From Branchiostoma floridae (taxonomy: Eukaryota > Chordata > Leptocardii > Amphioxiformes > Branchiostomatidae): a DNA stretch of 64,000 nucleotides. This document shows, one piece after another, positions 6,666 through 64,000 of this stretch. A program made the translations under genes and the position numbers. Positions within the stretch are counted from its first letter, which is position 1. Each line of letters opens with the position of its first letter. The stretch lies in NCBI RefSeq assembly GCF_000003815.2, contig NC_049994.1:4040254-4104253 (forward strand), read 5' to 3'. The notes beneath the pieces are model-generated. The model was not told where the DNA came from and did not search any database. It saw only the letters and a program-made list of their open reading frames with translations.

Positions 6666-7243
6666 TTAGTCAGTTCCGTCACTTAGAATATTTTCCCTTT
6701 GACGAAGTACTAAATCATCTCTTTCCAGAGAGTCAGTTGGGACACTTCCATAAGAATCCTTAACAAGCACCTCCACTTCATCTTCCACAACTACTTCTTC
6801 AACATCTAAATCACCTGATGGAGATGGGGGTCCCAACCACTCGTGCAAATTAGCCCAAAACCTTTCCCTAGCCATAGGTTCAGTCCAGTCCAGATATGTA
6901 CGCAAGGCAATTTTTTCTGGTATCTTACATTCTTCATACTTCACGACAACAACACAGTTTTTCATTTGGTCAAGTTTCCGTTGGTAAGTAAGGACTAATT
7001 CATGCATGCACCATCCACTCTTGATAAAGTTTTTGGACATTACCAGAATCACCTTACGGCTTTGGTAAATGGCATTGGCTATATTATCAAGTATTGGTTT
7101 ACCTAAGATAAAATCACGAATATCGAGACATACACTGTAACCGTTACTTTCCAGATTGCCTAACAGGTCATCTCTAACCCAGGAAGCATCCGCGCTGCTG
7201 TACGAGATGAACACGTCATAGTGGTGACTTTCTTCACTAGATC
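6666..7243 (-). CDS. Receptor 1 exon 15: TIR domain and C-terminal tail
   Basis: The exon begins after a CAG acceptor and encodes [16 protein letters not shown] and the rest of a complete TIR. Box 1 is YDVFISYSS. The box 2/BB loop is [12 protein letters not shown], the alphaC region [14 protein letters not shown], and box 3 contains [10 protein letters not shown]. The pattern matches TLR2-type TIRs (RDFxxGK, NFxxSxWCxxEL, YLxW, FW), but the BB-loop proline usual in TLRs is Leu. An acidic spacer rich in Glu, Asp and Val follows, then the conserved end [21 protein letters not shown] domains normally act as adaptor-recruiting modules; whether this one binds MyD88-type adaptors is not shown. Confidence 0.93.
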
Positions 7244-10200
7244 CTGAATAAAATACACATTATCGCTTCAGTAGAATGTTGTCTTCAGATTGGTATAACC
7301 CAACTAAAAAAGGCAACCATTTTGGTTCTCCAAAATGAGTAACAAAAAAAAATAGATAAATGAAGCAATGTACTCACTTTCCATTTGCTCAATGTTCTTC
7401 AAGGTCACACGCACGTCTCTTTCAAAGACCATCTGATTGATCCATGGGGCAATATACTTAACAAGGAGTATGGTTATCATGACCGCATATATAGAGTTGC
7501 CCACTGTGCAAACAGAAGATAAGAGAGTATTCAACAGTTGCAAGTATACTGTCTAACCGTCACAACGCTTATGGCTAACTTGCTCAGTAGCAAATCAAGG
7601 AGACATTTAACACAAATTATCTACAATGACCTAATTAACAAAATTGAACATGCATCAAGGTTAAGGCAATTGGTGATGAAAATGATTGTGTCAATTCAAG
7701 AATTGGTAGGCTTTGATCCATGATACAGTGTGATGTCGACTGCAGCTGCAGTTGCCATAATGCAATCTTTTAACTGTCTATAATTTAATAATTCCTGAGT
7801 AGTTACTGACGCATGGACACAATGCCTTCTTTTTTCTTTAGTGAACAGCAAGCTGAGAATATGAAGCAACTGCATGTTTGGTGTAGAGAGAGGATCAAAT
7901 ATGAATTTTCAAAGTAAACAGTCATACGACATCCTCAGCAAGATATCTGTGCCTAGTGTTATATTCATGGTTTATTCATACATATACACATACATATACA
8001 TATACATATACATACATGGACATACCAAACATTGCAGCCTGTTATACCTTGCTGTAAAACCGGCTGGATTAAGTTAGTTTTAGCCTTAGAATAACAACCT
8101 TGATATATGCAACATAACATACCTATCAGTAGCAATGAAGCAAAGCTCATCCTTCGAATGGCATCAGCTTGGATACGAATTTTGTCCTTATAGAATTCCT
8201 GATTGTTGGCCAACACTTTATTTCTGTTCAAGAGGTCGTTTACTGCGGAAAGAGAGAACAGTTTAAGTCTTGATGAATTCATGGCACAACAGAAATAGTT
8301 GTTTTTGGAAATCAATGTTGACTTGACTTCGACTTTATTGATGATGAGACAAGTCATTACATGGAACTGCCTGGACAGCTTTGGGCTGGTAGCAGCAGAC
8401 CCAACAAATATGTGGACGAACTTACAAAGACTTCATCACAAGAAACATTACAATATAATACAATGATATAAAAATAACCAATAACTATAAATTTGTTATG
8501 CATCTACAGATATCGAAGAAATTTATCTATGCCATTTATAGCCTGCCTAAAAGATTGGAGTAGGTGGAAGGTATGTATGAGTTGATTTTAGATTTAAGAT
8601 AAATCTAGATTAAGATTAAGAATGTTGCATATCAAGATATTAGGGAAAGCAAGCAATGAGTTGGAAACGCAAAATACAAGCTTATGTATGTGTAGGGTAA
8701 GTAGGATTCTTTAAGATGTCAGATATGTTCCATTTTCAAACAAAACATGTAATTGGTAATGGTTACATGTATGTGTACCAATAAGGATAATATACACAAA
8801 AACAGAAATTCAATTTTGTTACCTTGCTCCGTCAAGTTGTGAGGTTCAATGGAAAAGCTTTCTAGGGCCTCTAACGGAGCATTTGATATTTTACCATCGT
8901 CTTTGGAGCGACACTCATATGTTCCAAAAGCTTCTAGGTTGTCAGCATTCACATTGCACCATAGGAAGGGAACTAGCTGTTTCCCATCCCAGAACCTTTG
9001 ACTAATAAGTGTCGCGAAGTTGTCGTCATCTCTAATCTGAAAAAAATGTACACGGAATGCAGACTAGAACACCTTCATTGTGTTATTCTTTTCTTAATGT
9101 ACATCATTCAGTCCCACATTCAAGCCCACGGTGTCTCTCTCCCTCTCTAAGTATGTTCTAATTATGATAATCGGGCTAATGACCCGCTTTTCTTCAGTGT
9201 GAACGGTGCCATAATTCATGGTAGATTCCTAAAACAGCTTCATAAACGACAAATATAAATGTAAAAGCCAGACAGAGAGCGAGAGAGACAGAGAGAGAGG
9301 GAGAGAGAGAAAGAAAGAAATGGATTATAATAATTATACAATTATAATCTACACGTACCTGTACCCCGTTCCGATACCATGACAATTGTGATACTTCGTC
9401 CGTAGTAGTAAGGATATCTTTAGGAGAGTGACATGGCAGGTACATCAATGTGCCCAGCTTTATCTGCAGTCCTGCATGTGCATAAACATGTATCTTATTG
9501 AGACAGCACACACATGTACACGCACGTGCAATCTCGCTAACCCAAACCAACGGGTGGATTACAAAAAGTAAAAATGGATTCTGTAAGAATTAGGCAATAA
9601 CGGTACAGATTGTATTGAAATCAAACTTACGGTTTAGACCTAGAGGTCTCCAAATTGTACTCGGGGTGATCTGGAATGTGTTATGGAAATAGAGACCCCT
9701 GAAAAACATCAATACAAACATCTTATATATTTATGCCAAAGTTTCCAATCATTTCTGCTGAAGCCGGCCAGAAGGGAAAAGAAACTACGAACAAAATTAA
9801 TGTATATGCAGTAAGACGTTAAGAGGAAAGTACTGATTTCTTTCAAATTGGCACTTGCATTACACATACCTGTCAAAATAAGTTGAGTTTGCAGTAATGT
9901 CTATAGCACTTGGATCTCGGAGACCATCTTTTTCCAGAATGCAGTCGTAAATACCAAAGGAAGTCGGGTCCTTAACCTCAATTTCGAAGATTGCTGTGAC
10001 AATGGCGGCTCCATCATCTTCTACTGGTATGACCTCAACGTCTGGCCTTAAAAGCTGCAATACACAAGTTAATAGTTAATTGGGCGTTGAATTAAAATCT
10101 TGTACGCATTAAAACCAACTAACAGAACACCCGAGTGATCATTCAATTGATGAACATTATGTGATTGCTTACAGCCGACTTTTACAACAAAGAATATATC

Positions 10201-13200: not shown

Positions 13201-16200
13201 AAAATGATTTGTAACATTCTCTAGTGACACCCAGAATTTTTTTATAACATTTCAAAATGCACTTAAGCTACGCATCGCAAGAGACACTTTTCCGCTGCCT
13301 ACGGACGACATTCAAAACCCAGGACTGCCAAGTAGCCCCGCCCTAACATACGGCTTTCGAAAATTACATTGTGCATTCTACAGTAGTGCAAGCTTTCATC
13401 TCTGGCAAACATAGTCAATCTTAAAAACGACTGACATGTAAGTAACAAAATGTCAAAATGATAAATACCTTTTGGCTGATATAGCCTGAAAGAAGATCCA
13501 ACATTCCAATTCTCAATCATCGACCCATCTTGACAATCGACAGCCATGGCCAATTGCTTCAGTACGCATTTATACAGATCATAATCCTTAGGGCCATCGA
13601 TGGATATCTTCAACGTTGACTTGAATTTATGACGATCTGTTATAACAGATGTAGTTGATGTAACCTATGAAAATAAAATGTTAAAAAAGGTCCAATCACA
13701 CCGGATTATTGCCTCTTTTAAAATTGGAGGTTATGTTTCAGCACGAGCATTCCTTTATCACTCTATCTGCATTAACATTTTGTATCTACATTTGTATGTG
13801 TGAACAAGGTAACTCGAGAACGTCTGGATGGATGTTCTGATATTTGTTTTGTTGGTAGGTCTTGGGATGTGACCAGGGGTACATAGGCGGCTGCACGACC
13901 ATTATGAAATTCGTTCGAATCTTATGTGATACGCACGAATCACTATGTGACACACAGGATGATGATGATCATGAGCAGTTTTGCTGGTATCAGGAGAAAA
14001 CTGGGGTGAAATGTAACTAAGGTCAAATCTTTCTCAGAGCAAGCAGTCCTTTGAGTTTGAGCAGATCAACACCCTGTTTATTTTGATAGTTATGAAGATG
14101 ACCCTTGTGACTGTATGGTGAAGGAAAAAATTCAAAGATTAGAATTGGAAGCAGTACTTTCCTGAAGTGTGGTTTCAGTGTATTTTAACATGCTTTCATA
14201 TGGAGAGGTCCCAGACTGAGTGTGTAATATCAGCCCTGTAAAACAAGCTTCTGCAGCATTAAATGTTAGTATTTTCTCAACTTACCACCCTGTTGTCCTT
14301 CAACAGCACCATTTCACATAAACCCGTATCACATGGGCAGCAGTCAACGCAGGCAACTTCACATGTCAACGTAGTTTTGCACATATTGGACAGCTTAGGG
14401 TACAAGATCTTAGGTCGACTATAAGGACCTGAAAAACAACATTTGAATATGTTGAAAAAGGAAACAATTTTCAGCTACTGATCAGTTCCACAATCTCATT
14501 CATTTGGCAAATGATTAAAAGCTTCAAATTCATTTTGTATGATTGTTAAGAATTCTAGAGGTTATTAATCCTTATGATTAGAATGAGATCTAGATACTTC
14601 ATAAAAAGAATTAGTTGGTAATTATAACTTATGTTAAAACGTCCTCAAAATGTGTGATTTGGGGTTTTAACTGCATGTATGCATGACGTGCTAGAAAGGA
14701 CTTGCAGTCCAATGTAATTGCATCTTCTATGTACAGTTCATAGACCTAAACAGTTGTAAACAGGGAGCGCTATCTAATTGTGTCAGTTAAAATGAACGTA
14801 ATCACAGCCTATTACCCTTCTTTTAGGTCATAAGATAATTCAAACCAATTCCAGAATCTCTACTCACCTTTGAGTCTGGTTGAATGGATTATCTCTTTGT
14901 ATTTATTGTTGATTACAAGATGACAGTTGTACACACCATAGTCCGAGTGTTCAATGTTGTGTATTGACAAGATAGAGCGGAAGCTCTTGGTCTTCTTGGT
15001 CTCTTGGTCTAACTGTCTTGAGCATAAATGGCGTATGTTGTCTGGAACATTCACAACGTCCTCTGTAATAGTAATGCGACCATCCGACGTGTTTGATACC
15101 TATAGATAAAAAGCCAGTACATATTTTCATGAGCGCATGCAAAGTATGCCACTGCAAGTTAAATGGATTTAGTACTTGATCTGATTTACTAAATTGAACT
15201 GCATGCAAATGTACAATGATTACAATTGTACCGACAAAATCCAACAAAATCACCAAATATTGATCATAGTAGATATGGAAAACTTTGAATTCCAATCATG
15301 ATACAACCTTGGACCCTTTCATCAAATCGTTGTCTTTGAACCACAGAAGTTCCAACCCAACTCCAAGGTCATGGTTCCATCCGTGTGGCTGGGAGTATGG
15401 GTATGCACACCTCAATTCCTGGCTTTGACCAAGGGGCGGGGAGGTGCTTCCAACAGCAACAAAATAAATTGTGCGATCAGAAGACGATCCTGCAAGGTTA
15501 TACAAAGAAAGATAATTATTTCGGGAGCCAATATTTTACATAAAACAACATCAGGCTTTTAGCTATCATATGGTGTGCAATTCCTTGCTGACCGAAACTC
15601 CACAAGGGCATTTTTTTATTAATTTTGAATGTTCCGAATATAGAAATAAACCGATACCCAATGGACTTAAAAACATGAAGTTTTCAAACAAAATATCCAG
15701 GTAACAGGTACGGTGAAAAATCATAAAATGTGGTCATTTTCTTCTGCCTCTACTGCAGATATACTAACATGTTTCGAGCACTTTATTACATGAGCAGAAA
15801 TTCTGTTCCAAAATTTCAGGTCGTAATAAGATTGTGTTTCATGTCATAACACGCCGACCCAAAATACATACTCCTGGTTTAAAATGGACAAAAAATTTCT
15901 ACAAGACCAAACCGACTTTATTTTAGGGATGACATCCGCGTGAGAATTACGTTTTTGCCTGTTCTAAATAAAACAAACGGTGGCCACATGTCACCCCATG
16001 GTATACCTCACAAGGTCAATCAGAATTCTGTTCTTGCCAGTGTATCTGCTCCCCGACGCGTCACATGGCCAGGGCATTTGGCCATAGAGCCCCTGTTCCC
16101 CTCTTTGAACAAGAATGGCTATTAAATAATTCATTGAAACGGCGATGATTATATCTCAAAGGCTTACCGGAAGTGAACATAAAACAAACAAAGCCTAAGC

Positions 16201-16732: not shown

Positions 16733-17697
16733 AGATCAAAAGAAACATACACAATCATAAAAAACTATTGACTAGAGAAGACATTGTACATCGCCTTTCT
16801 AAAGCGTGAGATGTTGGGCAGGGATTTGATGTATGGTGGAAGGTCATCATTCCATAGACTGATGTCACGGTAGAGAAAAGTTCGCTTTTTTTTTAGTTTG
16901 TTTTTTGGCTTAGGTAGTTTAAAACTGAAGGAATTGGATAAAAGTGTGTGGGTAGAATGGACAGGAAGGATGGAACTGTAAATGTTCTGAAAAAACATAG
17001 TCAATGTGCTGATGGTGAATCTTTCTCTTACCATGGGACAACCCAAAACCGAATGCATTTGCTTAACAGGTGTTTTTGGCATACTACATGTATACCCCGT
17101 AGAGTCTGCTTTGAGCTAAAATTATAACGTTACTGCATTGTTCAGGGTTAAAGAACGCAGCCCCTGTATGCGTACTTTGCCCTTGGATTTTCACGTGGTA
17201 GGACTTTGTCCAGCTGCTCCACTTTGTCCTATGTAGGACTTTGCCCAGTAGGCTCCAATTGGGCAAAGTCCTGCCGCGTGAAAATACTACCGGGTGCAGA
17301 CGATTACTCCAGCGGCAGAAAGCTTTATCTGCCCCGTAGAGAGGTTACACTAGCTTCGTAGGCCGTCCAAGCCCGTAAGGACTGGATTCCATGTCAGACG
17401 AACAAGAAACCCAGACCAACATCGAGAACTCTTTCGTGTTCCATGTAACATTCGTAAACTTATTTTGATAGAGAATTGCCATCGAAGGCTGGCGATTTGC
17501 CACCACCACCTCCTTAAAAATTAACTGCCAAGCAGGCTAGCTGGTTTGTTACAGCGTAAATGTGACTAGTACCGGTAACATATCTTACCGTCCTTCCCCG
17601 GTGGACAGATGGCCCTTCTTAGGGCTGAGGCTGAGCCGATCCACAGCAGTATAATCGGACAGAGTGCCCGGTACGTCGTACCTGTAATGCCGACCAT
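6666..17697 (-). CDS. Receptor 1: five-Ig, single-pass, TIR-domain receptor
   Basis: Predicted type I membrane receptor of 904 aa, probably a recognition receptor signalling through its cytoplasmic TIR domain. Exons in transcript order: 17589-17697, 15308-15489, 14868-15099, 14286-14428, 13469-13664, 12780-12928, 11533-11728, 10344-10447, 9870-10054, 9631-9698, 9359-9471, 8823-9036, 8123-8242, 7378-7503, 6666-7243. All junctions are GT-AG and phase-compatible; the total is 2715 nt with no internal stop. Domains: signal peptide about 1-25; Ig1 37-174; Ig2 175-287; Ig3 288-402; Ig4 403-499; linker 499-521; Ig5 522-630; stalk to about 660; membrane span about 662-690; TIR from about 721. The Ig C-halves carry D(Y/F)GxYxC-type motifs; Ig1 and Ig5 also keep the core Trp (LLWFKD, LSWYRNG). 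The weakest junction is AAG|GTTGTA at 15308. IL-1R-type receptors usually have three Ig domains, so five is unusual. Ligand unknown. Confidence 0.87.
7378..8242 (-). CDS. Receptor 1 exons 13-14: stalk, membrane span and juxtamembrane helix
   Basis: Exon 13 (8123-8242) encodes a charged stalk ([20 protein letters not shown]) ending in SFASLLLI. Exon 14 (7378-7503) continues [19 protein letters not shown], so one hydrophobic span is built across the intron. The cytoplasmic start, [16 protein letters not shown], is nearly identical in all three paralogues. Joining phases are 1 and 1. A microsatellite of CATA/TATACA units lies in the intron side at about 7977-8016. Confidence 0.85.
7977..8016. 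repeat. (ACATAT)n-type microsatellite
   Basis: Imperfect alternation of 'catata' and 'tacata' within the receptor 1 intron between the stalk and membrane-span exons. No gene function is implied. Confidence 0.7.
9270..9320. repeat. GA-rich microsatellite beside the Ig5 exon
   Basis: Imperfect GAGA and GAAA tract ending about 40 bases from the splice donor of the Ig5 N-half exon (9359-9471). On the minus strand it is a downstream pyrimidine tract within the intron. Confidence 0.65.
10591..10653. repeat. Foldback hairpin, 19-bp arms
   Basis: GGTTCATACTAGTCAAAAG at 10591-10609 pairs with CTTTTGACTGGTATGAACC at 10635-10653 with one mismatch. It lies in the intron between the Ig3 and Ig4 exons of receptor 1 and may be a tiny MITE or its remnant. 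Confidence 0.55.
13880..13965. mobile_element. Fragment related to the 58660-59094 foldback element
   Basis: Contains 'tgtgatacgcacgaatcact' and neighbouring 'attcgttcgaatcttatg' units like those that build the palindrome at 58660-59094. No complete ends are present. It lies in a receptor 1 intron between Ig2 exons. Confidence 0.5.
16420..16451. repeat. Perfect 15-bp inverted repeat with 2-nt loop
   Basis: CAAGGAGCTTTTATC is followed after CT by its exact complement GATAAAAGCTCCTTG. Perfect pairing suggests recent origin or a tip-to-tip element junction. It sits in intron 1 of receptor 1. Confidence 0.65.
16638..16729. repeat. (TA)n microsatellite
   Basis: Nearly pure TA dinucleotides for about 80 bases preceded by imperfect CATATA. 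Short open frames of alternating Ile and Tyr across it are artefacts. Confidence 0.9.
16765..17090 (-). mobile_element. Non-LTR retrotransposon fragment (C-terminal end of ORF2-like protein)
   Basis: A minus-strand frame of about 105 codons contains [20 protein letters not shown] followed by an [16 protein letters not shown]-like end. This is the pattern of the extreme C-terminus of LINE reverse-transcriptase proteins. The catalytic domain is missing, so this is a 5'-truncated dead copy. The adjoining (TA)n tract lies at its 3' side. It sits in intron 1 of receptor 1, on the same strand. Confidence 0.65.
17187..17286. mobile_element. Small foldback element with repeated AGGACTTTG units
   Basis: 'attttcacgtggtaggactttg' at the left pairs imperfectly with 'caaagtcctgccgcgtgaaa' at the right. 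The interior repeats 'aggactttgcccag' and its complement. This MITE-like unit of about 100 bp lies in intron 1 of receptor 1, roughly 300 bases from the first exon. Confidence 0.55.
17589..17697 (-). CDS. Receptor 1 exon 1: signal peptide
   Basis: The frame starts [20 protein letters not shown] and continues [16 protein letters not shown], then splices at G|GTAAG in phase 1. The hydrophobic core followed by small residues (GSASA) is a typical secretory signal, with cleavage expected after ASA. The length of 36 codons plus one base equals that of receptor 2. The CPPGKD end is shared with receptors 2 and 3, which supports this start. Confidence 0.85.
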
Positions 17698-20488: not shown

Positions 20489-21285
20489 TCACAGCTCACT
20501 CTCTTCTTCGTTTTCGGTTAACACCTGTTCACCCATCCATACAACGGCCTTTCCCCCCATCGCCCCTATCACACCACCGACAATAGGTACAGGTATCAGT
20601 GCCTGTCCTATGGTACTACCTACAAGAACAGCTGAACCAGTAGCGACGCCCTTCGCAGCATGCCCAGCCAGCTCTAGATTATACTCCGTTTCGGAGATCT
20701 CCCCCTTTTCAAGTTTCTCTTGAGATTCTGATCTGTGATTTACAAAGTTGTATGCTTCCTCTGCCAGGGTTAAGCCTATTCCCACTGGGCCCTGAGTTGT
20801 TATTATGTTTTTAGCGAAAGAAGTTCCGCCTTGGTTTACAATCGTCTTCGTCGTTTCACTCGCAAAAACTGTAGTGCCCTGTACCACAGACGCCCCTATC
20901 CCAGACGTAGCCGCTTCAAGTACAAATTCTACTGCTCCCTCTTTAGCCACTTGTTTGGCACCTTCCCTCGCTGTTTCTTTAATCACAGTCTTACTGCCCT
21001 CTTGCACTACCTTCTTAGCCCCTTCCTTGGCCCCTTCCCTTAAAGTATTCTTCACTGTTTCTTTGAATACAGCTTTAGCGCCCTCCTTAGTCGCTTCACT
21101 ACCTGCAGATTTGGCCCATTGCTCCGAAGCTGCAGACATGAGGTTTTTCATTTGCCCCCTTACGCTATCTACAATTTCATTATCGACTGCTTTTTGCAAT
21201 TTATCAACTACCCACGCACTATACATACCAGCCAAGTACATAAAAGTATGGCCGCTGCCCTCCCTTTCATTTTGTGTTCTTGGAT
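20489..21285 (-). CDS. Terminal exon of the Ig1 chimera: EGAK-repeat and glycine-zipper-like domain
   Basis: The exon starts after TTTACTTTCCAG and completes an Asp codon split with the Ig exon. It encodes about 264 residues. The first 55 or so (MYLAGMYSAWVVDKLQKAVD onward) look helical. Then comes a run of K/E/A-rich repeats (KEGAKAVFKETV, REGAKEGAKKVVQEGSKTV, REGAKQVAKEGAVEF), reminiscent in composition of the 11-residue amphipathic repeats of synucleins and LEA proteins. The end has GHAAKGVATGSAVLVGSTIG, IPVPIVGGVIGAMGGKAVVW and an acidic tail. Small residues every three to four positions suggest a glycine-zipper hairpin. It is a single long intronless exon, unlike the short receptor exons. 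I do not recognise a named family; a pore-forming or membrane-binding role is inference. Confidence 0.8.
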
Positions 21286-21446
21286 CTGGAAAGTAAAGAT
21301 TGGATATATTTAGCACAAGAGATTGTTTCAAATCATCACAGCGTCTAACCACACATTGTGTTTAATGCAAAATACAGGTTAAAAATATGTTAGAGGTTGA
21401 AGTAAAAAAGATAGTTTAGTGTCAGTTTGTACCACAGTGCCCCCCA

Positions 21447-21485
<39 letters not shown>

Positions 21486-24400
21486 CATAAATAATTAAAC
21501 AGCATGTCTTGTGCACATTTATTGCCATAAACTTTAATTTTCGTTTCAGCAAACAGCCCGGCCAGGCCCCGGGAACGAAATGCGACATACGCCAAAACTA
21601 ACAAGGATGATAGGCTATGATAGGTGAATTCGAATTATTTCAAAATCTTACTCACCAATCAGTGTGAAAATGGAGACCAATGCCCCTTGTTCCATCTTTA
21701 ACGTCATATCATCGTTGACGTTGGCGGCTAGCATACAGTGGTACTCATCATAATCGGATTTCTCAACGTTGCGAATGGACAACACAGAAAGGAAGAACGT
21801 GTTTTCGGAACCTTTCACAACGTCGTCGGTAATGGTGACTCGACCGTCCAACGTGTTTGACACCTAGAAACAAGACATCACATAGAATATCTCCATTGTG
21901 GATATACAATAGATTAAAAGTTAAATGTTTTCTTGTAAACGGCGTCAGATTCAAGTGTCCAGCTCTAAAGAAATCCATCCAAGGTCACCGCAATAATTCT
22001 TGAATAATATTTGCATTTAGTTTGAATAACAAAATATCTGACTAATTAACGTTATAGTTATAATTTTTAAGTAGAAAATAAAATTTTGAATGTATTTGAA
22101 TTCATTTTCATTTTTTGAAACATTTTGGCTATTGTCCCTGGGAACTAGGTGCTAATCAGACCTAGTATATCATTTTTCACATTCTGAATATTTTCAAAGC
22201 TTGACGTAATAATGGAAATATGCAGAAAGTTGAGATAACTTTTAATGTCTAAAAATATCCATTATTACAGAAAAATAATTACAACGAAATGAAAGTATTT
22301 GTAAATGATAACTATAACAACCTTCTTCAACTTGGAATGAACTCTACTCGAAAGTACAAAGGCATATTGCATGCCAAAATCTTTATCTGCAAGAAAAATC
22401 CTTATTGTCTGTATTAACTTTGTAAAAGAATGGACATCTATGATCTTACCAGCTCGTTTCCTTTGAACCAGAACAGTTTCAATCCCGCGAAATGGGAGAA
22501 ACGACATGTCATTTCTTGGCTCTGACCAAGAGTCGGTAACAAGGTGCTCTTTGATTCTGTAATGTAATACAAAAGCAATCTTTAATAAAAAGTATGTTGA
22601 TGATTTGTATGACACAGGATGCGATCAGAACGTATATGTCTTATCAAAAAGGGAATTATGGGAGTGCCCACTGGACGCGCGAAGTGTAAGATATTTATAT
22701 TTCAGCCATACATAGTATGGTGAAATATATTGTATTCGTAATGTTTCTTTCTTTCTTTCTTTCTTTCTCCTGTCAAATCTTCAAAGTGATTCATCTCCGC
22801 CGTTCCTGGACCGAATGACCTGAAATTCGGCACAAGGGTAGAGTGGGCCAATACCTTGATGCTTTTTTCTCATTATTTTCATATCTGCCTCTAAAATGAT
22901 TTTATTGAGATTTTTTGGTCAATTTTAGACCAAAACTGTATATTTTGGCCCCTGTACCCTGGTATTACAACCAAATGAGCTGAAATTTGACAGAGATGTG
23001 CCTTGATAATGCCCCCATATAAATTCGATAACACTTTCGGTGTACAGTACAACAAAATGCTTATTTTTGCGATTTTTTGACCAATTTTTGACCAAAAAAG
23101 GACACTCTTGGCCCCTGTACCCTGGTATTACAACCAAATGAGCTGAAATTTGACAGAGATGTGCCTTGATAATGCCCCCATATAAATTCGATAACACTTT
23201 TGGTGTACAGTACAACAAAATGCTTATTTTTGCGATTTTTTGACCAATTTTTGACCAAAAAAGGACACTTTTGGCCCCTGTACCCTGGTATTACAACCAA
23301 ATGAGCTGAAATTTGACAGAGATGTGCCTTGATAATGCCCTAATATAAATTCGATAACACTTTTGGTGTACAGTGCAACAAAATGCTTATTTTTGCGATT
23401 TTTGGCCAACTTTTGACCAAAAAAGGACACTTTTGGCTCCTGTACCCTGGTATTACAATTAAATGACCTGAAATTTGGTATAGATAGGTATTAGATACTT
23501 GGTAACAAGATTCAAGTAAAATTTTTGACATAAACAACTTTAAAATGATTAATTTTGGCACTTTTCTGAGGGGAAATTTGTTTTCTTTTGGCCTCCTGAC
23601 GTGACCTTCCGTGACCCCGCACAGAGACACACCTGTGCGCGTCAGCCGGAGAGTTAATTGAATCAAAGACCTAGCCAATCAGCGAAGGGGAGGCCAAAGG
23701 CTAATTAGTATTCATAAGCGGGGCCTCATGATCCCATATATAGCAGTGTTCCCGCCAGGGGGAGCGAAGCCCGCCTAAGGCTCTCGCATTTTAGACTATT
23801 CAGAAGGCTTTATATTGTATCAGTTCTTAGGGGCATATCTATGATAATCGCAGCAGTCACTTAACTTCTCTTCAGGAGTTTAGCGTAACACTATTTCAGG
23901 TCAAACCGTCAAAGGCAACTAAAACAAACTTTAACGTTACTGAGTTCAACAGTACTTATAACTTGTTATCCGAAGTTGAAACGCTAGCGATGGTATTTTC
24001 GCTGCGCTGTTAGCTCCGTGCGACTGTTGTTGACGGTCTTATAGCGGTATATTTTGCACCCCTGTACCCTGGTATGAGTAACATTTGGTATAGATAGGCA
24101 TAAGATAGTTGGTAAAATGATCCAAGTAAAATTTTTGGCATAAAGTACTGTAAAAGGCTTAATTACAGCACTTTTTTTAGGGGAAATTTGTTTTCTTTCG
24201 TTCTCCATGCCATGACCTTTCGGACGTTCACCCCACAGAGCCGACATCTGTACCTGCGTCTAGCCGGCAGGAAGAGTTACAGTAATTCAATTAATGGTTC
24301 AGCCAATCAGCGAAGAGGAAAGCGAGGGCTAATTAATATTCATAAGCGGGACCACACAATACGTTAACTTGAAGACTCAGGCCGTACAGACTTCTCGCCA

Positions 24401-27400
24401 GGATTTTTTCAAAGCGTCGGACAGGGGTCCGGGGGCCGCCGAATGTCCCTGGCGGGGTCCAGGGGCAGGGCCACTGTGGGGGGGACCCAGGTGGGTGAAG
24501 CCCCCCCGGAAGCTCTTGCATTTTAGACTATTGAGAAGGCTTCTTTTATCAGTTTTTTTAGGGCCATATCTACGATAATCGTAGCAGTCACTTACTTCTC
24601 TTCAGCAGTTTGACTTTAAAATATTTCGGGTCAAAGCTTCAAAGACNNNNNNNNNNNNNNNNNNNNNNNNNNNNNNNNNNNNNNNNNNNNNNNNNNNNNN
24701 NNNNNNNNNNNNNNNNNNNNNNNNNNNNNNNNNNNNNNNNNNNNNNAGCGCTTATTTATAGCGCTAGTATCTTCGCTGCGCCGTTAGCCGCCGTGCGACT
24801 TTGTGACGGTCTGATATCCCTACGTCGCCGCCTCGCTGATATTCCCACGGACATGTTTCAAGACAAATACCCAGCAAAAAACGCTGTTCTGCGTCTAATT
24901 CTATTCTATAAAACATGTGGGACTCAGTGTTACAGTCTAAATATTTTGTAGAAGCACCGCTGTAGGAAAGAAGGTCCAAGCAATGTAAAACATCACGTAG
25001 CATGAAGTTCGCTGTCAACTGGCACACAGCACATGACTGTTTGAAACTCTAAGTCTAATCAACAGCCGTGTTTGATTGATAGCCGGAGGTCCTTTGATGA
25101 AGTCGGCGAAAGGTGCGTTAGTTAGAAAATCTGCGTTTAGTTTTCATACGTAATTATAAGTTAAACAGTGGCGAGAATGATTATTTTCTCATCAATATTT
25201 CTCTTCAGAATTATTTGAACTTAATTGTACATCTAAACAATTGGCTTACCTGTGCAATGTTTATCTGATTAATGATCAGTGTACTGAAACCATGTGTAAC
25301 GTATGGCTCCTAGTCAATAGATCAGCATTTTCTCTATAGTGACCACCTGTCTGTAGTGGCCACATTTCCACCCCCGTTAAACTCCAGCTCCGGCCCGTAC
25401 GGTCCAGCTCCGGCCCGTACGGTCCAGCTCCTGCCCGCACTGATTCCAGCTCCGGCCCGCACGGTCCAGCTCCTGTCCGCACGTCCCAGCTCCGGCCCGC
25501 ACGGTCCAGCTCCGGCCCCGCACGGTCCCTTTTTCACTAAAAAATTGGCCAAAAAAGTTTAAAAGTTGCCCGTTTTAAGAAAATTCCGGGACGACATGCA
25601 AAACTTTTTAGCGCATTCGTTGGTTAACATGTTTGCCCATCCTCTGACCGAATATGACGGCCCAAAACCCGCTGGTTTTTGAGATTACCCCATACCTCCC
25701 GTCGCGCTACCATAAGTCAGGCGCACCTAGGCGTAGAACGCCATGGCCAATGAAAATTTCCGCTTTACGCACAGAAGGAACGCACGATCTTTGATAAATA
25801 CAGATAACATTAATATCATGATGATTTTGTTTACAACTGCAGGAGCAATGTGCAATGAAATAACATTAATTTGTCCCTGCTAACACTTTCATTCATTTTC
25901 TGTTATGTTCAGACTAAGCTGTATATACATGATAGGCTTGATTGCATGACAAGCATTTATCTAGTCCCACATCTATTCAATATGTTTAACAACAATCTGT
26001 AAACAGCAATTGGCATAACCAAAACTAAAACCCCCCTGTTACACAACTTTCTTCAGAATAAACAAATTTTTGGGCATGACCAATACATCTCATTTGTTGC
26101 TCATGTGCTCACCATAAAAGTACAACAACTCTTTCCATTGTATACATGTATATCAGGCATGTTTTAATTTGTAAGCATCTATAGATATGAGGTTATATGC
26201 ATCATCCTGATATTTATATATTGTTGTTAGCATAGACATTTTGTTAGCCACATACAAGTAAATAGTCTCTATCATGGGCATTTTGTTAACCATATATGAG
26301 TAAGTCTCTAGAATGGGCATTTTGTTAGCCATATACAAGTAAGTAGTCTCTAACATGGACATTTTGTTAACCACATACAATTACAAGTAAGTAGTCTCTA
26401 GAATGGGCATTCTGTTAGCCACATGCAAGTAATAGTCTCTATCATAGGCATTTTTGTTAGCCACATAGAAGTCAGTCAGGGGCATGATGAGTGTCGCAAG
26501 AGGAACTGGGTCATGGACCACCGTTTGAAGTTGTGAAAATGGACAGTCATGTTATTAATGTTATCTGTATTTATCAAAGATCGTGCGTTCCTTCTGTGCG
26601 TAAAGCGGAAATTTTCATTGGCCATGGCGTTCTACGCCTAGGCGCGCCTGACTTATGGTATCGCGACGGGAGGTATGGGGTAATCTCAAAAACCAGCGGG
26701 TTTTGGGCCGTCATATTCGGTCAGAGGATGGGCAAACATGTTAACCAACGAATGCGCTAAAAAGTTTTGCATGTTGTCCCGGAATTTTCTTAAAACGGGA
26801 AACTTTTAAACTTTTTTGGCCAATTCTTTAGTGAAAAAGGGACCGTGCGGGGCCGGAGCTGGACCGTGCGGGCCGGAGCTGGGACATGCGGACCGGAGCT
26901 GGACCGTGCGGGCCGGAGCTGGAATCAGTGCGGGCAGGAGCTGGACCGTACGGGCCGGAGCTGGACCGTGCGGGCCGGAGCTGGAGTTTAACGGGGGTGA
27001 TTTCTATCACTGGACTGGAACTTGCGAAAACTGCTGTATTTTCTCCAGAGCAAATGTATGTGTTCCTAGTGCTGTTGTTGTTTGACATAAACTTTGAACA
27101 TTTGAATTGTAAGTAACTTTAAACTGCCAGAGTTTCAGCCCAATAAAACACTCTCAGCGCCAGGGTATGAACAGACTGACCAGACAGACGAAAATAAATC
27201 CTCGAACAAGGTTCAATCGTATCTTCCGGGTCTGGCAGGAAGTTGTTAAACTAAAAGAAGAATAGGCTCGATGGCTGATTGCATACAAAGTAAAACAGTT
27301 TAACAGTTTTACAGCTTGAAGAAAACAAACGCTCCTACAGTACCTGCACCTGCTTGATAATTATTAAATCGTATGCCGTACTTGAATAAAAAAAGTTCAC

Positions 27401-28579
27401 TGCAATAATAAATGTACCCACATTACAAGGAGCTTATACTTTTTTAAACTTACACCTAGTTATCGTACTGAAAATTGTTAATGACATTACATGAAGTCAT
27501 TCAACAGTTTTCAGTCATGATGAAAATTTTCTGAATGGAAGGTGTGATTATTGTCATTTTCTGAAAAATAGAAGCAAGCTCTGTTTTTACCTGGAATCAA
27601 TTCACAATACCAGTCCACTTTGGGGGATAATGTACTGTTAAGAGGATGTTCCATTTTTGCGCAGGGGTGATTTGGAACAGTCCAATGTTGCGTGGGAAGG
27701 GGTATGGCTGAAATATGCTGTATTTGCTCTTAAGCAAATGTCGGCCTTTCTAGTATCTTTCAAATTTTTTCGAACATCTTGTTTATTTGTACTCCGTTGA
27801 TTTTACAAATAAGGTATTTGATTAACATTACATGTGTCCATTTATCACTTCCTGACACTCTCACGATGAAAGTGACTTGCATAAATGCGAAAACTCAGAC
27901 ACACCAAAACAAAACCTCCCCGTTTATCATATATTATTAATAATAGCCTCATCTACTAACCCGATGACCCGGAATTCGAATATCTGTCAACAGTGACTCA
28001 AAGATGATAAACGACCACTTAAAATAACTATACCATCTACTTCCTGTCCCACTTGTGACCTTTGGACTCTGTTACTCTGTATAAGATGTACCTATATATA
28101 GCTTCAACTCATTAGAGATTATGATATAGCATATGGAAATAGCTGCGGAAACACCCAGCCTGCACCGAAAACAATACCTTCGTACACGGAAGTTATAGTG
28201 ACAGACCACAAAGTGTAAGGTAGGCAGAACACCATGTCATGGCTGAACCTACACTCACACCCATTCCAGCCCCCACCTTTCGTTTGAGATTTTGATAAAC
28301 ATTTCAACTATAAATTGTTTCAAACCTACAAATCCCTGGAATTTCTGGTCTTAATCAGAATATAGCTTAGGCTACAAAACAGCCTTACCTTTGTAATAAT
28401 TTGCGTTATGTTTAAGTTTATCTCACTCACTACACTATGTACATTGCAATGACGTAACGTTACATTTGACCAATGTAACGTACATGTGACTTACCAGTAG
28501 GCGTCCGAGCTGTCGTCACCGTGATAGTTGACAGCAAAATAATCGGAAATAAGAGACATAGCTTCATGGTACCCACCAT
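20489..28579 (-). CDS. Ig1-EGAK chimera: signal peptide, one Ig domain, glycine-rich membrane-interacting tail
   Basis: Predicted 398-aa protein from four exons: 28495-28579, 22450-22556, 21656-21863 and 20489-21285 (1197 nt, phases 1, 0, 1, all GT-AG, no internal stop). Exon 1 encodes a signal peptide. Exons 2-3 encode an Ig domain with EMTCRF, LFWFKGNEL and DYDEYHC, clearly homologous to receptor Ig1: the C-half begins VSNTLDGRVTITDD against [14 protein letters not shown] in receptor 1. Exon 4 is unrelated to the receptors and encodes EGAK repeats plus a glycine-rich hydrophobic stretch. There is no TIR. I infer a secreted or membrane-inserting relative of the receptors made by partial duplication and exon gain. 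The 5.9 kb first intron contains mobile elements and an assembly gap, so a missed exon or a different first exon is possible. Confidence 0.75.
21447..21480. repeat. (CA)n microsatellite
   Basis: Pure CA repeats in the intron between the Ig C-half exon and the terminal exon of the chimera. Confidence 0.85.
21656..22556 (-). CDS. Ig1-type domain exons of the chimera
   Basis: Exon 22450-22556 begins after CATTACAG and encodes SKSTLLPTLGQSQEMTCRFS to FWFKGNEL, then G|GTAAGA in phase 0. Exon 21656-21863 begins after TTTCTAG with VSNTLDGRVTITDDVV and carries [20 protein letters not shown]. It ends G|GTGAGT in phase 1. The LGQSQE motif and the VSNT start match Ig1 of receptors 1 and 2, so the domain is an Ig1 paralogue rather than an unrelated Ig domain. 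Confidence 0.85.
22741..22768. repeat. (CTTT)n microsatellite
   Basis: Seven or so CTTT units at the start of the tandem-repeat block in the first intron of the chimera. Confidence 0.8.
22921..23475. repeat. 163-bp tandem repeat, about 3.3 copies
   Basis: The landmark 'cctgtaccctggtattacaa' begins at 22951, 23114, 23277 and 23439, a spacing of 163, 163 and 162 bp. Copies 1-3 are nearly identical and the last diverges. Overlapping minus-strand open frames across it are repeated translations of the same unit, not genes. Confidence 0.9.
23439..24835. repeat. Direct duplication of an approximately 0.6-0.7 kb unit, second copy broken by the gap
   Basis: Two diverged units start with 'cccctgtaccctggtat' at about 23438 and 24058. 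They share in order 'ggtatagatagg', 'ggggaaatttgttttcttt', 'agccaatcagcgaag', 'aatattcataagcggg' or a variant, 'cattttagactatt', 'tctacgataatcg', 'tcacttacttctcttcag' and 'cttcgctgcg'. The first 5' part is also the last unit of the 163-bp array. It is probably a non-autonomous mobile element in tandem. Unit 1 contains CCAAT (23675-23679) and TATATA (23737-23742). Confidence 0.65.
24647..24746. other. Assembly gap (100 N)
   Basis: Exactly 100 N, a conventional placeholder length, so the true size is unknown. It falls inside the second copy of the duplicated unit, consistent with a repeat-induced assembly break. Missing sequence could include an exon of the Ig1 chimera, although the flanking exon phases already fit. 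Confidence 0.98.
25369..26999. mobile_element. Long-inverted-repeat (foldback) transposon with 5-bp target duplication
   Basis: The element runs from CACCCCCGTTAAACTCCAG to its complement CTGGAGTTTAACGGGGGTG. Arms of roughly 430 bp match almost perfectly (25369-25805 against about 26545-26999). 'atttc' flanks both ends (25364-25368 and 27000-27004), a good target-site duplication. Each arm carries about seven copies of a 20-bp unit 'ccagctccggcccgcacggt'. The interior, about 740 bp, is AT-rich with a minisatellite and encodes no transposase, so it is non-autonomous. GC-rich frames in the arms are artefacts of the 20-bp repeat. Confidence 0.88.
26226..26478. repeat. Minisatellite of about 40-50 bp units
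   Basis: Six units of the type 'gggcattttgttagccacat' plus 'acaagtaagtagtctct' lie inside the foldback transposon, next to its right arm. Unit lengths vary by small indels. Confidence 0.8.
28495..28579 (-). CDS. Ig1 chimera exon 1: signal peptide
   Basis: The frame MVGTMKLCLLFPIILLSTIT continues VTTARTPT and ends G|GTAAGT in phase 1. A methionine four codons in (MKLCLL) is an alternative start. The hydrophobic core and the A-R end suit a secretory signal. The CPxGK motif that follows the signal in the three receptors is absent. Phase 1 fits the Ig exon at 22450-22556, but assignment across a 5.9 kb repeat-filled intron is inferred. Confidence 0.7.
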
Positions 28580-30549: not shown

Positions 30550-31151
30550 TCAGTCAAAACCATTACTGGGAATGTTTTGCCTTTGACGAAGTACAACGTC
30601 ATCTCTTCCTTGCGAGTCAATTGGACCACCCCCATTATTCTGACAAGTTTCAGATTCTTTACTTTCAAGCAACTCCTCACCCCCTAGCTGATCATCTTCT
30701 TCAATATCCATATCGAGTGACGGATTCGGAGGTCCCAACCATTCGTGTAACTTGGCCCAGAATGTCTCCCTAGCCATTGGTTCAGTCCAGTCCAGATATG
30801 TACGCAAAGCTATCTCTCTTGGTATCTTACAGTCTTCATACTTTATCACAACTACACAATTTTCTTTTTGATCAAGCTTCCGTTGGTAAGTAAGAACCAA
30901 CTCATGCATGCACCATCCACTCTTGATGAAATTTTTGGACATGACCAGAATCACCTTGCGGCTTTGGTATATGGCAGTTGCTATGTTAGTAAGTACTGGT
31001 TTACCTACGATAAAATCGCGAGTATCAAGACACACTCTGTAACCATTGCGTTCCAGATTACCCGACAGATCATTTCTAACCCAAGAAGCATCCTTGCTGC
31101 TGTAGGAGATGAACACATCATAGCTTCCTTCCTTCCTTTCTTCAATGGACC
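30550..31151 (-). CDS. Receptor 2 exon 15: TIR domain and tail
   Basis: Encodes [20 protein letters not shown], then the BB loop [29 protein letters not shown] and FWAKLHEWLG. By hand count 112 of 130 TIR positions match receptor 1. Valine occupies the usual BB-loop proline site. The acidic spacer (IEEDDQLGGEELLESKESE) is unlike receptor 1 in sequence, but the final peptide [18 protein letters not shown] is conserved. Confidence 0.92.
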
Positions 31152-34100
31152 CTGAATAGATTATATTCCACATTAAATCACATTGTACTTCATTAACATG
31201 CAGTTAATATATATCGCTAAAGCACTTAACCAGCTGCTGCTGTGCCACTTCTCTTTGAAGCTGTTGTGTTATGACGAAGGGCGGTTATACCGGCTATATG
31301 AAAATTCAGATACAGATACAAAATACGAATGAACATTATTTTTGTGTGTACTATTGCTGATCAAAATGGAAACAAGACTATGTGTAAATCCATATACAAA
31401 GGAATAGGTACCTTCTCCGAGCATATCCATCTGCTGAATGTTATTCAATGTCGTTCTCAGGTCTCTTTCGATGATTTTTCGGTTGACAAACCGGCAGAGC
31501 GATATCATGCCGTTTAACAATATCATAACAAGCATGGTTAGCATCAGTTTCAGATGTTGCTCGGCTACTGTACAGAAATAGAAAAAAATCAATGTCAGAT
31601 AAACGCAATGTAGAAATGTTAGATAAGGAATTGATTGTAATTGCACATGACGGACCGACTCATTCATGCACCAACTCCTGCCATTGCTCAACGTATGTTT
31701 TTATGTAGAATATAAGTGACAGCAATGCATCGGCATACTGTGTGGTAATGTAAGACATTGGCTGTCAGATACACGATCAGTCTAACCTTTAAGTTCTAGA
31801 GAGTTTCAGGCTATACTGGTTTCTTAAAATACAATGTACAAAGCACAAGTACAATCCATATTTCTGTACTCTAGCAAAAGACACGAAAGCTTTGGATTCA
31901 ACTTGAGGAGGGGGTATTTTCAACTTTGACAGGGCTGAAGATGCGAAGATGCAGAACTGATTATGTAACGATGTTACAGTCATTATTAGACAAAATGTTT
32001 AATGTAGAAAGAAAGCCAAACATGTTAATAGACCGTGATGAAAGACAAGTCGGTTTTGTCCTGACATCGATCCCTAGTGATTTACTAGTGATTATACCTA
32101 CTCGATTTCCATTCCTTTGCGTAACCGAGAATCTTGTATATAAGAGCATAATTCTCCTCAATGTGGTCATCATACTGTCTCTTCAAGTCGTGTGCATTGT
32201 CCTGCCAGTTTTTCCAATTGCTGTAGAAAAATAGTGCTATGGAATAAAAAGAAATAAGAAACGTCTAAAGTTATCAATGTTGTGTGATACATAGCAACGT
32301 TAATTATAATACATATTCATGAGTTGAAACAATTCTATACTATATAATAAGCGTAGAGAAACATTATTTCCAATCAGAGATTAAGGTGTGGTGATTTGTT
32401 GCGATACTTCTGTTGTAGGTAGACATCCTTAAGAAATCACGGCCACTACTACCCTTGACCGTAACGTAGCTGACGTAGACGTGGAGTAGCCATGCCATAT
32501 AACAAGAAAGGTTAAGATATTTCGAATAAGAATATCAGTCATTGTACCTTGCTCTTTCCAGTCTTGTGGCTCAATGACAAAGCGTCGCCTGATCTTCAAT
32601 GACTCATTTGGAACCTTATTACCCTTATAACGACAGGTGTAAGTCCCGAAGTCATCCAACTTTTCCATGGTTATATTGCACCAGAGGAAGGAGACTACAG
32701 TATCCAAAACCCTGAATCTTTGCTTTATGAACGTTGCCTTATGGTGGTTGTCGTCTTCAGTAATCTGTGAGAATACATAATAGTACACTGTCATAGCATG
32801 CAACTGTAGACAAGAAATTAAAAAATCTCATACCTACATCAAATATTTCAACTTTTTTTAAAATTTCTTACCGCCATAGCCCTAAACGTTAGTGATCCTC
32901 AACTTCTCTTCCTTAATCAACCCCAGTTATCTCCCTCCTACAAGAGGTAATTTGTCTTAACCACATTCTATAGTCTACACCTCTCTACCCTCAGGAAGGG
33001 GGTGTCGGTCTGATAAGGTGGTATCTCACTGAACTTGCGCTTCCGTCACTGCGGGGTTCGGAGATTAATTTCAGAGCTAAACACCGAATTTTATTACGTC
33101 TTTTAAGTCGTAACGTTACTCTTACATATTACGCAATATCTAAATTATGAGAATCGGCGAAAATAACACAACAGTGACGCAGTGAACGAACCCCGCAAGC
33201 TTGACGCAAGTTCAGTGAGATACCACCTTAATTTAGAGAGATCCACACTTACCCTTTGTCCATTTCGATACCAGGACAGCTCTGCCACATCGGTATCTGC
33301 CACATCGATGTCTTGAACATATTCACAAGGTAAAGAAAAGGTCCAACCTAGCGCAGAGGGGACTCCTACATGTAACATATTTGATATGATATTGTCTGAC
33401 GAACACACAACCTTAAACAATTATTGCTATATTGCCTACAAACGCATTTAATTCTTTATTCGGAAATGTTAGCCTCTACCAGGCTTCGTGGATCGGTGGT
33501 CTAATTGTAGAAATTGGACAAATAGAGTTTATAGCACGCTAAGGGAGTTAGCCGGCCAGAAGAGTACGTTTCCTCACCACAAACGGATGATAGAACACTG
33601 ACCAAATAAGGTATGAACAGTACTAGTGATTAATCAATCATTCAAGCACCAACGTTACCCATTGTACATGTGCCTGACTTAAAAATAGTTGTACTTAAAA
33701 CAAAACTGTACAAGAAACGGAGACTAACGCAAAAAGACTATCGTCTGTGATCACTTCATGATAACTTACGTTTTCGGAATTCAAATTGCCAAGGGAAGAT
33801 GATCTGGAACGTGGTGCTTAGGCGTTCCTCCCTAACAAGTCAAGTACATTACGGAAAAGATATCAAATATTTTGTCTCTCAATAGTTAATTTCTATTTAC
33901 ATTGAATAATTTGTAGCAATATGTAGTTTTCCATACATGATTGAAGAATGTCTTATTTTTGTAGTGGAAGGAAACAATGATAATCACACAAATAGTTATG
34001 TAAATAGTAGGCATCCTTCCATCTTTACAGATGATGGTAGCTCTCTGCATGGAGTTATGGCGGCTGTTTAAAAGTACGTCATCGAAATAATTCAGAAAAG

Positions 34101-42232: not shown

Positions 42233-42813
42233 TCAGTCAGAACCGTTACTGGGAATATTTTGCCTTTGACGAAGTACAACATCATCTCTTTCCAGAGAGT
42301 CAGTTGGGACACCCCCATTAGAATCTTCAATTGCAAGTACCTCCACCTTTTCCTTCTTACGTTCTTCTTCAATACCCTCATCAAGTGGTAGGAATGAAGG
42401 TCCCAGCCACTCGTGCAAATTGGCCCAAAACCTTTCCCTAGCCATAGGTTCAGTCCAGTCCAGATATGTACGCATAGCTAGACCTCTTGGTATCTTACAG
42501 TCATCGTATTTGACGACAACCACACAATTTTCTCTTTGGTCAAGCTTTCGCTGGAAAGTAAGGGCCAGTTCATGCATGCACCATCCACTATTGATAAAGT
42601 TTTTGGACATGACCAAAATCACCTTGCGGCTTTGGTAAATGGCAGTAGCTATGTTAGTAAGTATCGGTTTACCTGCTTGAAAATCACGAGTATCGAGACA
42701 TACTGTGTAACCGTTACTTTCAAGATTGCCTAACAGATCCTCTCTAACCCAAGACCCATCCGAGCTGCTGTACGAGATGAACACGTCATAGTGGTGACTT
42801 CCTTCACTGGATC
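42233..42813 (-). CDS. Receptor 3 exon 15: TIR domain and tail
   Basis: Encodes [22 protein letters not shown] loop [29 protein letters not shown] and [10 protein letters not shown]. By hand count 110 of 130 TIR positions match receptor 1. Alanine replaces the usual BB-loop proline and Gln precedes it. A lysine/glutamate spacer follows ([19 protein letters not shown]), then [18 protein letters not shown]. Confidence 0.93.
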
Positions 42814-63882: not shown

Positions 63883-64000
63883 GTTGTCGCACTTCAGCGA
63901 CAAAATCATGCGAAACCTTTGATTAACATCCCTCAAGCGATGCGAAACTACAGGCTGTTCTCAAGCCCATACACACCCCTGGACGTTCTATTTATTTCCA

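What the first reader, a model, noticed from the sequence alone, without database searches (positions are those of the whole stretch)
20489..28579. Chimeric gene: receptor Ig1 module fused to a novel EGAK/glycine-zipper-like domain
The first three exons copy the receptor plan (signal exon phase 1, Ig N-half phase 0, Ig C-half phase 1). The next exon is neither Ig nor TIR but a 264-residue K/E/A-repeat plus glycine-rich hydrophobic domain. Phases fit exactly (G|AT gives Asp). Its position inside a receptor array points to exon shuffling or domain capture in a recognition locus. A secreted Ig-guided protein with a membrane-active tail, or a decoy for receptor ligands, would be a new architecture. 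Seen: exons, phases, Ig motifs. Inferred: secretion, membrane activity, immune role.
Basis: partly seen in the sequence, partly recalled or inferred. Interest (0 to 1): 0.9.

Follow-up and report, generated by a model that had tools for sequence, protein, structure and literature searches.

The report
Amphioxus Ig–membrane-tail fusion gene
Inside a tandem array of immune-type receptor genes in an amphioxus-like genome sits a gene model that joins the receptors' first immunoglobulin domain to a membrane-type tail, and that tail is related to lipid-enzyme genes elsewhere in the same genome and to bacterial proteins catalogued as candidate anti-phage defences.

Summary
The four exons are in the sequence as described. 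They splice on paper, with AG/GT at every internal junction, into a 398-residue frame: signal peptide, one Ig domain, a K/E/G/A repeat, a glycine-zipper hairpin. Receptor C downstream has its own predicted signal and Ig1 exons, so this is a gene model of its own. Splicing is untested.

The tail is not a novel domain. Two loci on another chromosome carry the same repeat and hairpin behind an LRAT domain; two more carry the hairpin module. Outside animals, the last ~75 residues match PDC-M09B, a PADLOC candidate anti-phage family (E 2.3e-11). Much of that score is one 15-residue motif, but profile comparison gives E 1.6e-20, and the flank without the motif outscores all 298 scored column shuffles.

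The repeat has a four-residue period. Divergence from the C18 paralogues falls mostly on third codon positions. The tail exon opens with DPR, as receptor D's Ig2 exon does: a weak hint of fusion inside an Ig2 exon.

Best reading: a TIR-less secretory Ig protein whose tail binds or enters membranes. Expression, function and other species could not be tested.

The parts
28495..28579 (-). Exon 1: start codon and signal peptide (MVGTMKLCLLFPIILLSTITVTTARTPT), ends in phase 1; lacks the CPxGK motif of the receptors' signal exons
22450..22556 (-). Exon 2: Ig1 N-half (B-strand Cys, core Trp), ends in phase 0
21656..21863 (-). Exon 3: Ig1 C-half (DYDEYHC), ends in phase 1
20489..21285 (-). Exon 4 (terminal): 264-residue tail after a split Asp codon; begins DPR, like the Ig2 exon of receptor D
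20930..21100 (-). K/E/G/A repeat with 4-residue period, predicted amphipathic helix
   Evidence: moment 0.59 at 90 degrees, 0 of 2000 shuffles reach it; the eight best autocorrelation offsets are all multiples of 4
20513..20734 (-). Glycine-zipper hairpin module (GEIS helix plus GQALIPVPIVGGVIG hairpin) shared with LRAT paralogues and bacterial PDC-M09B-type proteins
24647..24746 (.). 100-base N run inside intron 1 (assembly gap or withheld stretch)
17589..17697 (-). Predicted signal exon of downstream receptor C
   Evidence: best-scoring candidate of a scan for ATG, hydrophobic stretch and phase-1 donor
14867..15439 (-). Ig1 N-half and C-half exons of receptor C (approximate outer bounds)
6666..7259 (-). 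TIR exon of receptor C
30550..31203 (-). TIR exon of upstream receptor B
42233..42844 (-). TIR exon of receptor A

Best explanation
A separate protein-coding gene that arose when a copy of an Ig-TIR receptor's first Ig domain was joined to the tail of an LRAT-repeat-hairpin type gene, with everything from Ig2 to TIR lost. The product would enter the secretory pathway (signal peptide), carry one Ig domain of the receptors' kind, and hold or push itself into a lipid bilayer with an amphipathic period-4 helix and a glycine-zipper hairpin. Most likely it binds what the neighbouring receptors bind, without signalling, as a membrane-tethered decoy or as an Ig-guided membrane-active effector. Shown: the exons, the frame, the paralogies, the tail's relatives. 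Inferred: splicing, secretion, membrane insertion, ligand sharing, immune role.
For: Gene model with correct junctions and phases. Predicted signal exons and matching Ig1 exons of their own in receptors A, B and C. Tail paralogues with LRAT. Codon-position differences 0.27/0.28/0.61 with dN 0.35, dS 2.57 against C18b, and 0.32/0.31/0.59 with dN 0.43, dS 1.56 against C18a. Amphipathic period-4 repeat and a hydrophobic hairpin, highest 19-residue hydropathy 1.69. Module homology with bacterial proteins. No match to six receptor exon queries (Ig2 to TIR) between 17698 and 21660 better than E 0.059, and that one is on the other strand. No TIR match in the gene in the genome-wide TIR search.
Against: No transcript evidence. 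Intron 1 spans an N run. No canonical poly(A) signal within 1500 nt of the stop. dS against the C18 paralogues is near saturation, so the constraint may date partly from before the fusion. The hairpin's hydropathy is only marginal for a transmembrane helix. With the shared motif masked the single window tail scores 7.0 bits on the bacterial profile. The flanking DNA of the tail exon shows no kinship with the receptors' Ig2 exons.
Confidence: 0.45

Rival explanations
1. Alternative isoforms of one transcription unit: the chimera's signal and Ig1 exons are an alternative first cassette for receptor C, and the tail exon is an alternative terminal exon giving a short TIR-less isoform.
For: Same strand. 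Exon 3 ends in phase 1, and receptor C's Ig2 exon (first base 14428) opens in the same phase, so exon 3 could join either.
Against: Receptor C has a predicted signal exon of its own (17697-17589) and its own Ig1 exons.
Confidence: 0.2
2. The terminal exon belongs to a separate gene with its own start, an N-terminally shortened copy of the LRAT-repeat-hairpin genes, and the Ig exons upstream are an orphan or decaying receptor start.
For: The C18 paralogues are encoded in single long open frames of 446 and 653 codons. The tail exon has in-frame Met codons near its start. No canonical poly(A) signal follows it.
Against: A pyrimidine-rich acceptor in the right phase (11 pyrimidines) and a DPR start like receptor D's Ig2 exon. 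Both Ig1 exons are open with the Ig landmarks. A stand-alone version would have lost LRAT.
Confidence: 0.2
3. The locus is a pseudogene or a transient fusion without function.
For: The Ig1 C-half exon of receptor D is broken by a frame disruption, so decay or misassembly occurs in the array. [quoted passage not shown]
Against: All four exons are open. Third-position excess in both tail comparisons.
Confidence: 0.15

Closest known systems
LRAT-repeat-hairpin genes of this genome (C18:791290-792522 and 796721-798571)
   Same: Same K/E/G/A repeat and same glycine-zipper module, 48% and 44% identical over the best matched stretch, coding in one long open frame each
   Different: They have an N-terminal LRAT domain (Pfam E 1.9e-14 and 1.3e-16) and no Ig domain was found in the frames scanned
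PDC-M09B, PADLOC candidate anti-phage family (bacteria)
   Same: The C-terminal module of about 75 residues: PADLOC E 2.3e-11, hhalign E 1.6e-20
   Different: Full-length members read here are about 480-500 aa with a different N-terminal part (HGxIAE motif in 54 of 80 loci); in the one locus scanned the gene follows PDC-M09A. The family is a candidate label only
Ig-TIR receptors of the same array (IL-1R-like plan; that name is recalled)
   Same: Signal exon, Ig1 N-half and C-half exons, phases, Ig1 sequence 44-52% identical to A-D
   Different: No Ig2 and later Ig domains, no TIR, no CPxGK motif in the signal exon
VCBPs, secreted Ig-V plus chitin-binding domain proteins of protochordates (PMC4757023, PMC2632668; search listing and abstract starts)
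   Same: Works-like comparison: a secreted protochordate Ig protein with a non-Ig domain
   Different: [quoted passage not shown] here one Ig domain and a membrane-type tail

Membership tests
Ig-TIR receptor (IL-1R-like) family | Signal peptide plus receptor Ig1 | tested here: met
   the signal peptide was judged by hydropathy, not by a dedicated predictor
Ig-TIR receptor (IL-1R-like) family | Cytoplasmic TIR domain | tested here: not met
   No TIR match in the gene in the genome-wide search that finds the TIR exons of A-D; no TIR or later Ig remnant between 17698 and 21660
LRAT-domain proteins | LRAT domain | tested here: not met
   Pfam LRAT absent from P0007, present in P0001 and P0002
LRAT-repeat-hairpin group of this genome (tail only) | K/E/G/A repeat followed by the glycine-zipper module | tested here: met
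PDC-M09B | C-terminal glycine-zipper module | tested here: met
   Against: three motif-keeping shuffles of the tail also hit PDC-M09B, E 2.3e-5 to 3.5e-7 on the model where the tail has 2.3e-11; on the second model the best shuffle (1.7e-6) is close to the tail (2.3e-7)
PDC-M09B | Full-length match including the N-terminal part | tested here: not met
   Best match covers residues 189-261 of the tail, profile 330-398 of 480
VCBP | Chitin-binding domain | tested here: not met
   None among the four Pfam matches listed for the tail up to E 10; HMMER's filters drop most matches above about 0.1
Expressed spliced gene | Reads across the three junctions | not testable with these tools
   No transcript data held
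Membrane-active protein | Hairpin inserts in a bilayer | not testable with these tools
   Structure prediction switched off; only hydropathy and periodicity computed

The most novel reading that the evidence does not exclude
A glycine-zipper membrane module shared with bacterial candidate anti-phage proteins has been put behind the ligand-binding Ig domain of an animal receptor family, giving a secreted protein in which recognition and membrane attack or anchoring sit on one chain, with no signalling domain: a minimal one-gene 'recognise and act' immune effector in a chordate.
Probability: 0.2. Interest if true: 0.85.

Novelty: new variant of a known kind. Interest (0 to 1): 0.62.

Why it matters
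Lancelets are reported to gain new domain pairs at more than 10 per Myr, with Ig domains spreading almost entirely through 1-1 phase exons (PMC4284660, passages). This locus would be a concrete, testable case inside a receptor array, and it links an animal immune-type locus to a membrane module of bacterial candidate defence proteins. Two searches for a paper on the module, 'LRAT' with 'glycine zipper' and 'PDC-M09', returned none in the held library. If the protein is made, one can ask directly whether a receptor ectodomain was turned into an effector or decoy by a change of tail.

Tried and rejected
Tail as a new domain: rejected, paralogues and bacterial relatives found. Chimera as merely the 5' part of receptor C: C has its own predicted signal exon and Ig1 exons, though isoform sharing stays open. 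T3SS translocon match of the tail (NCBIfam E 4e-8, 32 bits against a cut-off of 540): covers only residues 25-160, the repeat, judged composition-driven. Gas-vesicle and histone-fold Pfam matches of the tail are below their cut-offs; the histone-fold match of the C18b paralogue is over its cut-off (32 against 21.4 bits), but no single stretch passes, and I take it as a product of its repeats. PDB matches: none convincing. Phage records by tblastn: no match at E 0.01. PHROGs: nothing better than E 0.017. Flanking DNA of the tail exon against the Ig2 exons of A, B, C, D: 152, 53, 64 and 217 of 500 shuffles reach the observed score, so no support for the Ig2-exon breakpoint. The first run of the bacterial profile search gave an empty table; repeated. 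Viral contigs: 12 relatives of 91 pattern stretches, not followed up.

Against my reading. With the shared 15-residue motif masked, the window tail scores only 7.0 bits on the bacterial profile, and three relatives 11.4, 11.8 and 17.5; motif-keeping shuffles score a median of about 30 bits, at most 49.8, against 58.3 for the real tail (6000 shuffles). The bacterial loci were picked by a pattern inside that motif, which makes motif-based scores partly circular. In PADLOC the best motif-keeping shuffle (3.5e-7) is not far from the weakest real relative (7e-8). The answers I have are the motif-free test (298 of 300 column shuffles returned a score) and the PADLOC models, which were made independently of my alignment. 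The genome search with Ig1 (9 candidates scored) is insensitive: receptor C's own Ig1 exons appear only at E 1.35 and 4.67, below two C15 rows at 0.69 and 0.74, so it does not show that Ig1 is confined to this array.

Full report
What was checked. The window lies at C16:4040254-4104253 of a 513-Mb genome in 431 contigs. The size fits Branchiostoma floridae, but that name is recalled and comes from no tool. Exon 4 is part of a 290-codon open frame. The junctions are predictions: no transcripts are held. Intron 1 contains a 100-base N run.

It is a gene model of its own. The window holds three Ig-TIR receptors on the same strand. Their TIR exons are at 42233-42844 (A), 30550-31203 (B) and 6666-7259 (C), Pfam TIR E 4.2e-20, 5.8e-21 and 1.5e-20. 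A fourth, D, lies just outside (TIR at C16:4107481; Ig1 C-half at C16:4114488). Receptor C, downstream of the finding, has a predicted signal exon at 17697-17589, the best candidate of a scan, and its own Ig1 exons near 15439 and 15099, so it does not need the chimera's exons. The chimera's Ig1 is 44-52% identical to those of A-D (for D the broken middle was left out). A genome search with the chimera's Ig1 finds rows below E 0.6 only in this array, but it is insensitive: receptor C's own Ig1 appears only at E 1.35 and 4.67, below two C15 rows at 0.69 and 0.74. Ig1-like exons elsewhere are therefore not excluded. Six receptor exon queries (Ig2 to TIR) gave nothing better than E 0.059 between 17698 and 21660.

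What the tail is. Searching the genome with the tail gives itself, then two loci on C18 (E 5.4e-32, 44%; E 1.2e-25, 48%), one on C5 (1.4e-9) and one on C13 (2.9e-9). Of 26 matches up to E 10 the rest are weaker, mostly to the repeat, with two weak module matches at C5:18.84 Mb. The C18 loci are long single open frames with an LRAT domain in front (Pfam E 1.3e-16 and 1.9e-14) and the same repeat and hairpin behind. In the C5 and C13 frames scanned, Pfam recognised no other domain above its cut-off. A second search with the C13 module returned the same five loci up to E 1. The repeat has a period of four residues: hydrophobic moment 0.59 at 90 degrees (80-129 degrees scanned), reached by 0 of 2000 shuffles, and the eight best autocorrelation offsets are all multiples of four. 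The hairpin module has two glycine-rich hydrophobic stretches around an IPVP turn; its hydropathy maximum is 1.69 over 19 residues, a marginal value for a membrane helix.

Relatives outside animals. A scan of prokaryote genomes with the five-member module alignment found 124 relatives among 180 pattern stretches; 80 were kept. Six of the 80 were scanned against PADLOC. Three match PDC-M09B, a candidate anti-phage family, over their full length (E 2.6e-199, 9.6e-249, 5.6e-158), and three more weakly (3.6e-24, 1e-13, 2.9e-14). The window tail itself matches at 2.3e-11 and its LRAT paralogue P0001 at 2.2e-8; the other three confident relatives match at 5.2e-9 to 7e-8. Three shuffles of the last 104 tail residues that keep the 15-residue motif also match, at 2.3e-5, 1.9e-6 and 3.5e-7, so the motif carries much of the score.

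Three tests ask for more than the motif. The real tail scores 58.3 bits on a profile of 54 bacterial modules, against at most 18.8 for 10,000 shuffles of the five amphioxus sequences and at most 49.8 for 6000 motif-keeping shuffles of the tail. Profile against profile gives probability 99.3 and E 1.6e-20 over 70 columns, while an unrelated glycine-rich bacterial segment gives 0.7%. In a rerun with controls the real pair scores 105, against at most 70 for 150 motif-keeping column shuffles; the flank before the motif alone scores 28.6 (E 2.2e-5), against at most 13.4 in the 298 of 300 column shuffles that returned a score. With the motif masked, however, the single window sequence scores only 7.0 bits. 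I take common descent of the module as likely, convergence as not excluded. By crude motif, 54 of 80 bacterial loci are of the M09B type, 3 look HNH-like, 15 are other and 8 are short or truncated: the module sits behind different N-terminal parts.

How the fusion may have formed. The receptors' Ig2 N-half exons begin DPDTDLEK (A), DLEERDWP (B), GPYSRPKI (C) and DPRDVWLR (D); the tail exon begins DPRTQNER. The DPR shared with D would fit a tail that landed inside an Ig2 exon and kept its acceptor and phase. It is three residues, and alignment of the surrounding DNA gave nothing, so this is a hint only. A published suggestion for TRADD-N immune genes of other animals is fusion through integration of reverse-transcribed transcripts (PMC8195603, passages), which would suit the single-frame C18 genes; nothing here tests it.

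Is it under constraint? Against C18b the tail differs at 0.27, 0.28 and 0.61 of first, second and third codon positions (dN 0.35, dS 2.57, 179 codons); against C18a 0.32, 0.31 and 0.59 (dN 0.43, dS 1.56). The two C18 genes against each other give dN 0.20, dS 0.31. The pattern is that of protein constraint, but dS is near saturation and part of the path predates the fusion.

How it most likely works. A signal peptide would take the Ig domain and tail into the secretory pathway. The receptors' Ig1 suggests that it meets the same ligands. The tail would bind or enter a bilayer. It has no TIR and cannot signal as the receptors do. So a tethered decoy, or an Ig-guided membrane-active effector, is the best guess; I cannot choose between them. 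Protochordate VCBPs are a precedent for a secreted Ig protein with a non-Ig domain (PMC4757023, PMC2632668; search listing and abstract starts).

Novelty. New domain pairs are frequent in lancelets, with Ig among the most promiscuous domains (PMC4284660, passages), and 20 of 28 TIR combinations in amphioxus were reported as specific to it (PMC2575513, passages). What is new here is the particular pairing and the link of its tail to PDC-M09B. Two searches for the module, 'LRAT' with 'glycine zipper' and 'PDC-M09', found no paper in the held library. I rate it a new variant of a known kind.

Noticed in passing
L052:226-490 (C16, receptor D Ig1 C-half): The Ig1 C-half exon of receptor D reads into a stop in one frame and continues in another, so it is broken in this assembly or misassembled.
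   Followed up: partly
window 25390-27020: Intron 1 of the chimera holds what looks by eye like a long inverted repeat with GCTCCGGCC units near both ends, a foldback-type element; not run through a repeat tool.
   Followed up: no
G000:C15:17675191-17713384: 15 of the 20 LRAT rows lie in one tandem cluster on C15, apart from the C18 LRAT-repeat-hairpin genes.
   Followed up: no
L037:4277-5876: The C5 relative of the tail module has an open frame upstream (5256-5876) that reminded me, from memory, of TRADD-N type immune adaptor domains; Pfam and PDB searches gave no support.
   Followed up: partly
L039:5184-8308: Two neighbouring C5 frames resemble the tail module distantly (23.2 and 30.2 bits on the bacterial profile); the first begins with what looks by eye like a signal peptide.
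   Followed up: partly
L126:176-5943: In an Enterobacter MAG the PDC-M09B gene sits after a WYL regulator and PDC-M09A and before an 839-aa protein that matches the N-terminal part of PDC-M09B weakly (E 2.3e-6).
   Followed up: partly
window 28495-28579, 17589-17697, 39782-39908, 63783-63909: Signal exons of receptors A, B and C end in a CPxGK motif that the chimera's signal exon lacks, so a possible extra disulfide of the receptors' Ig1 would be missing.
   Followed up: partly
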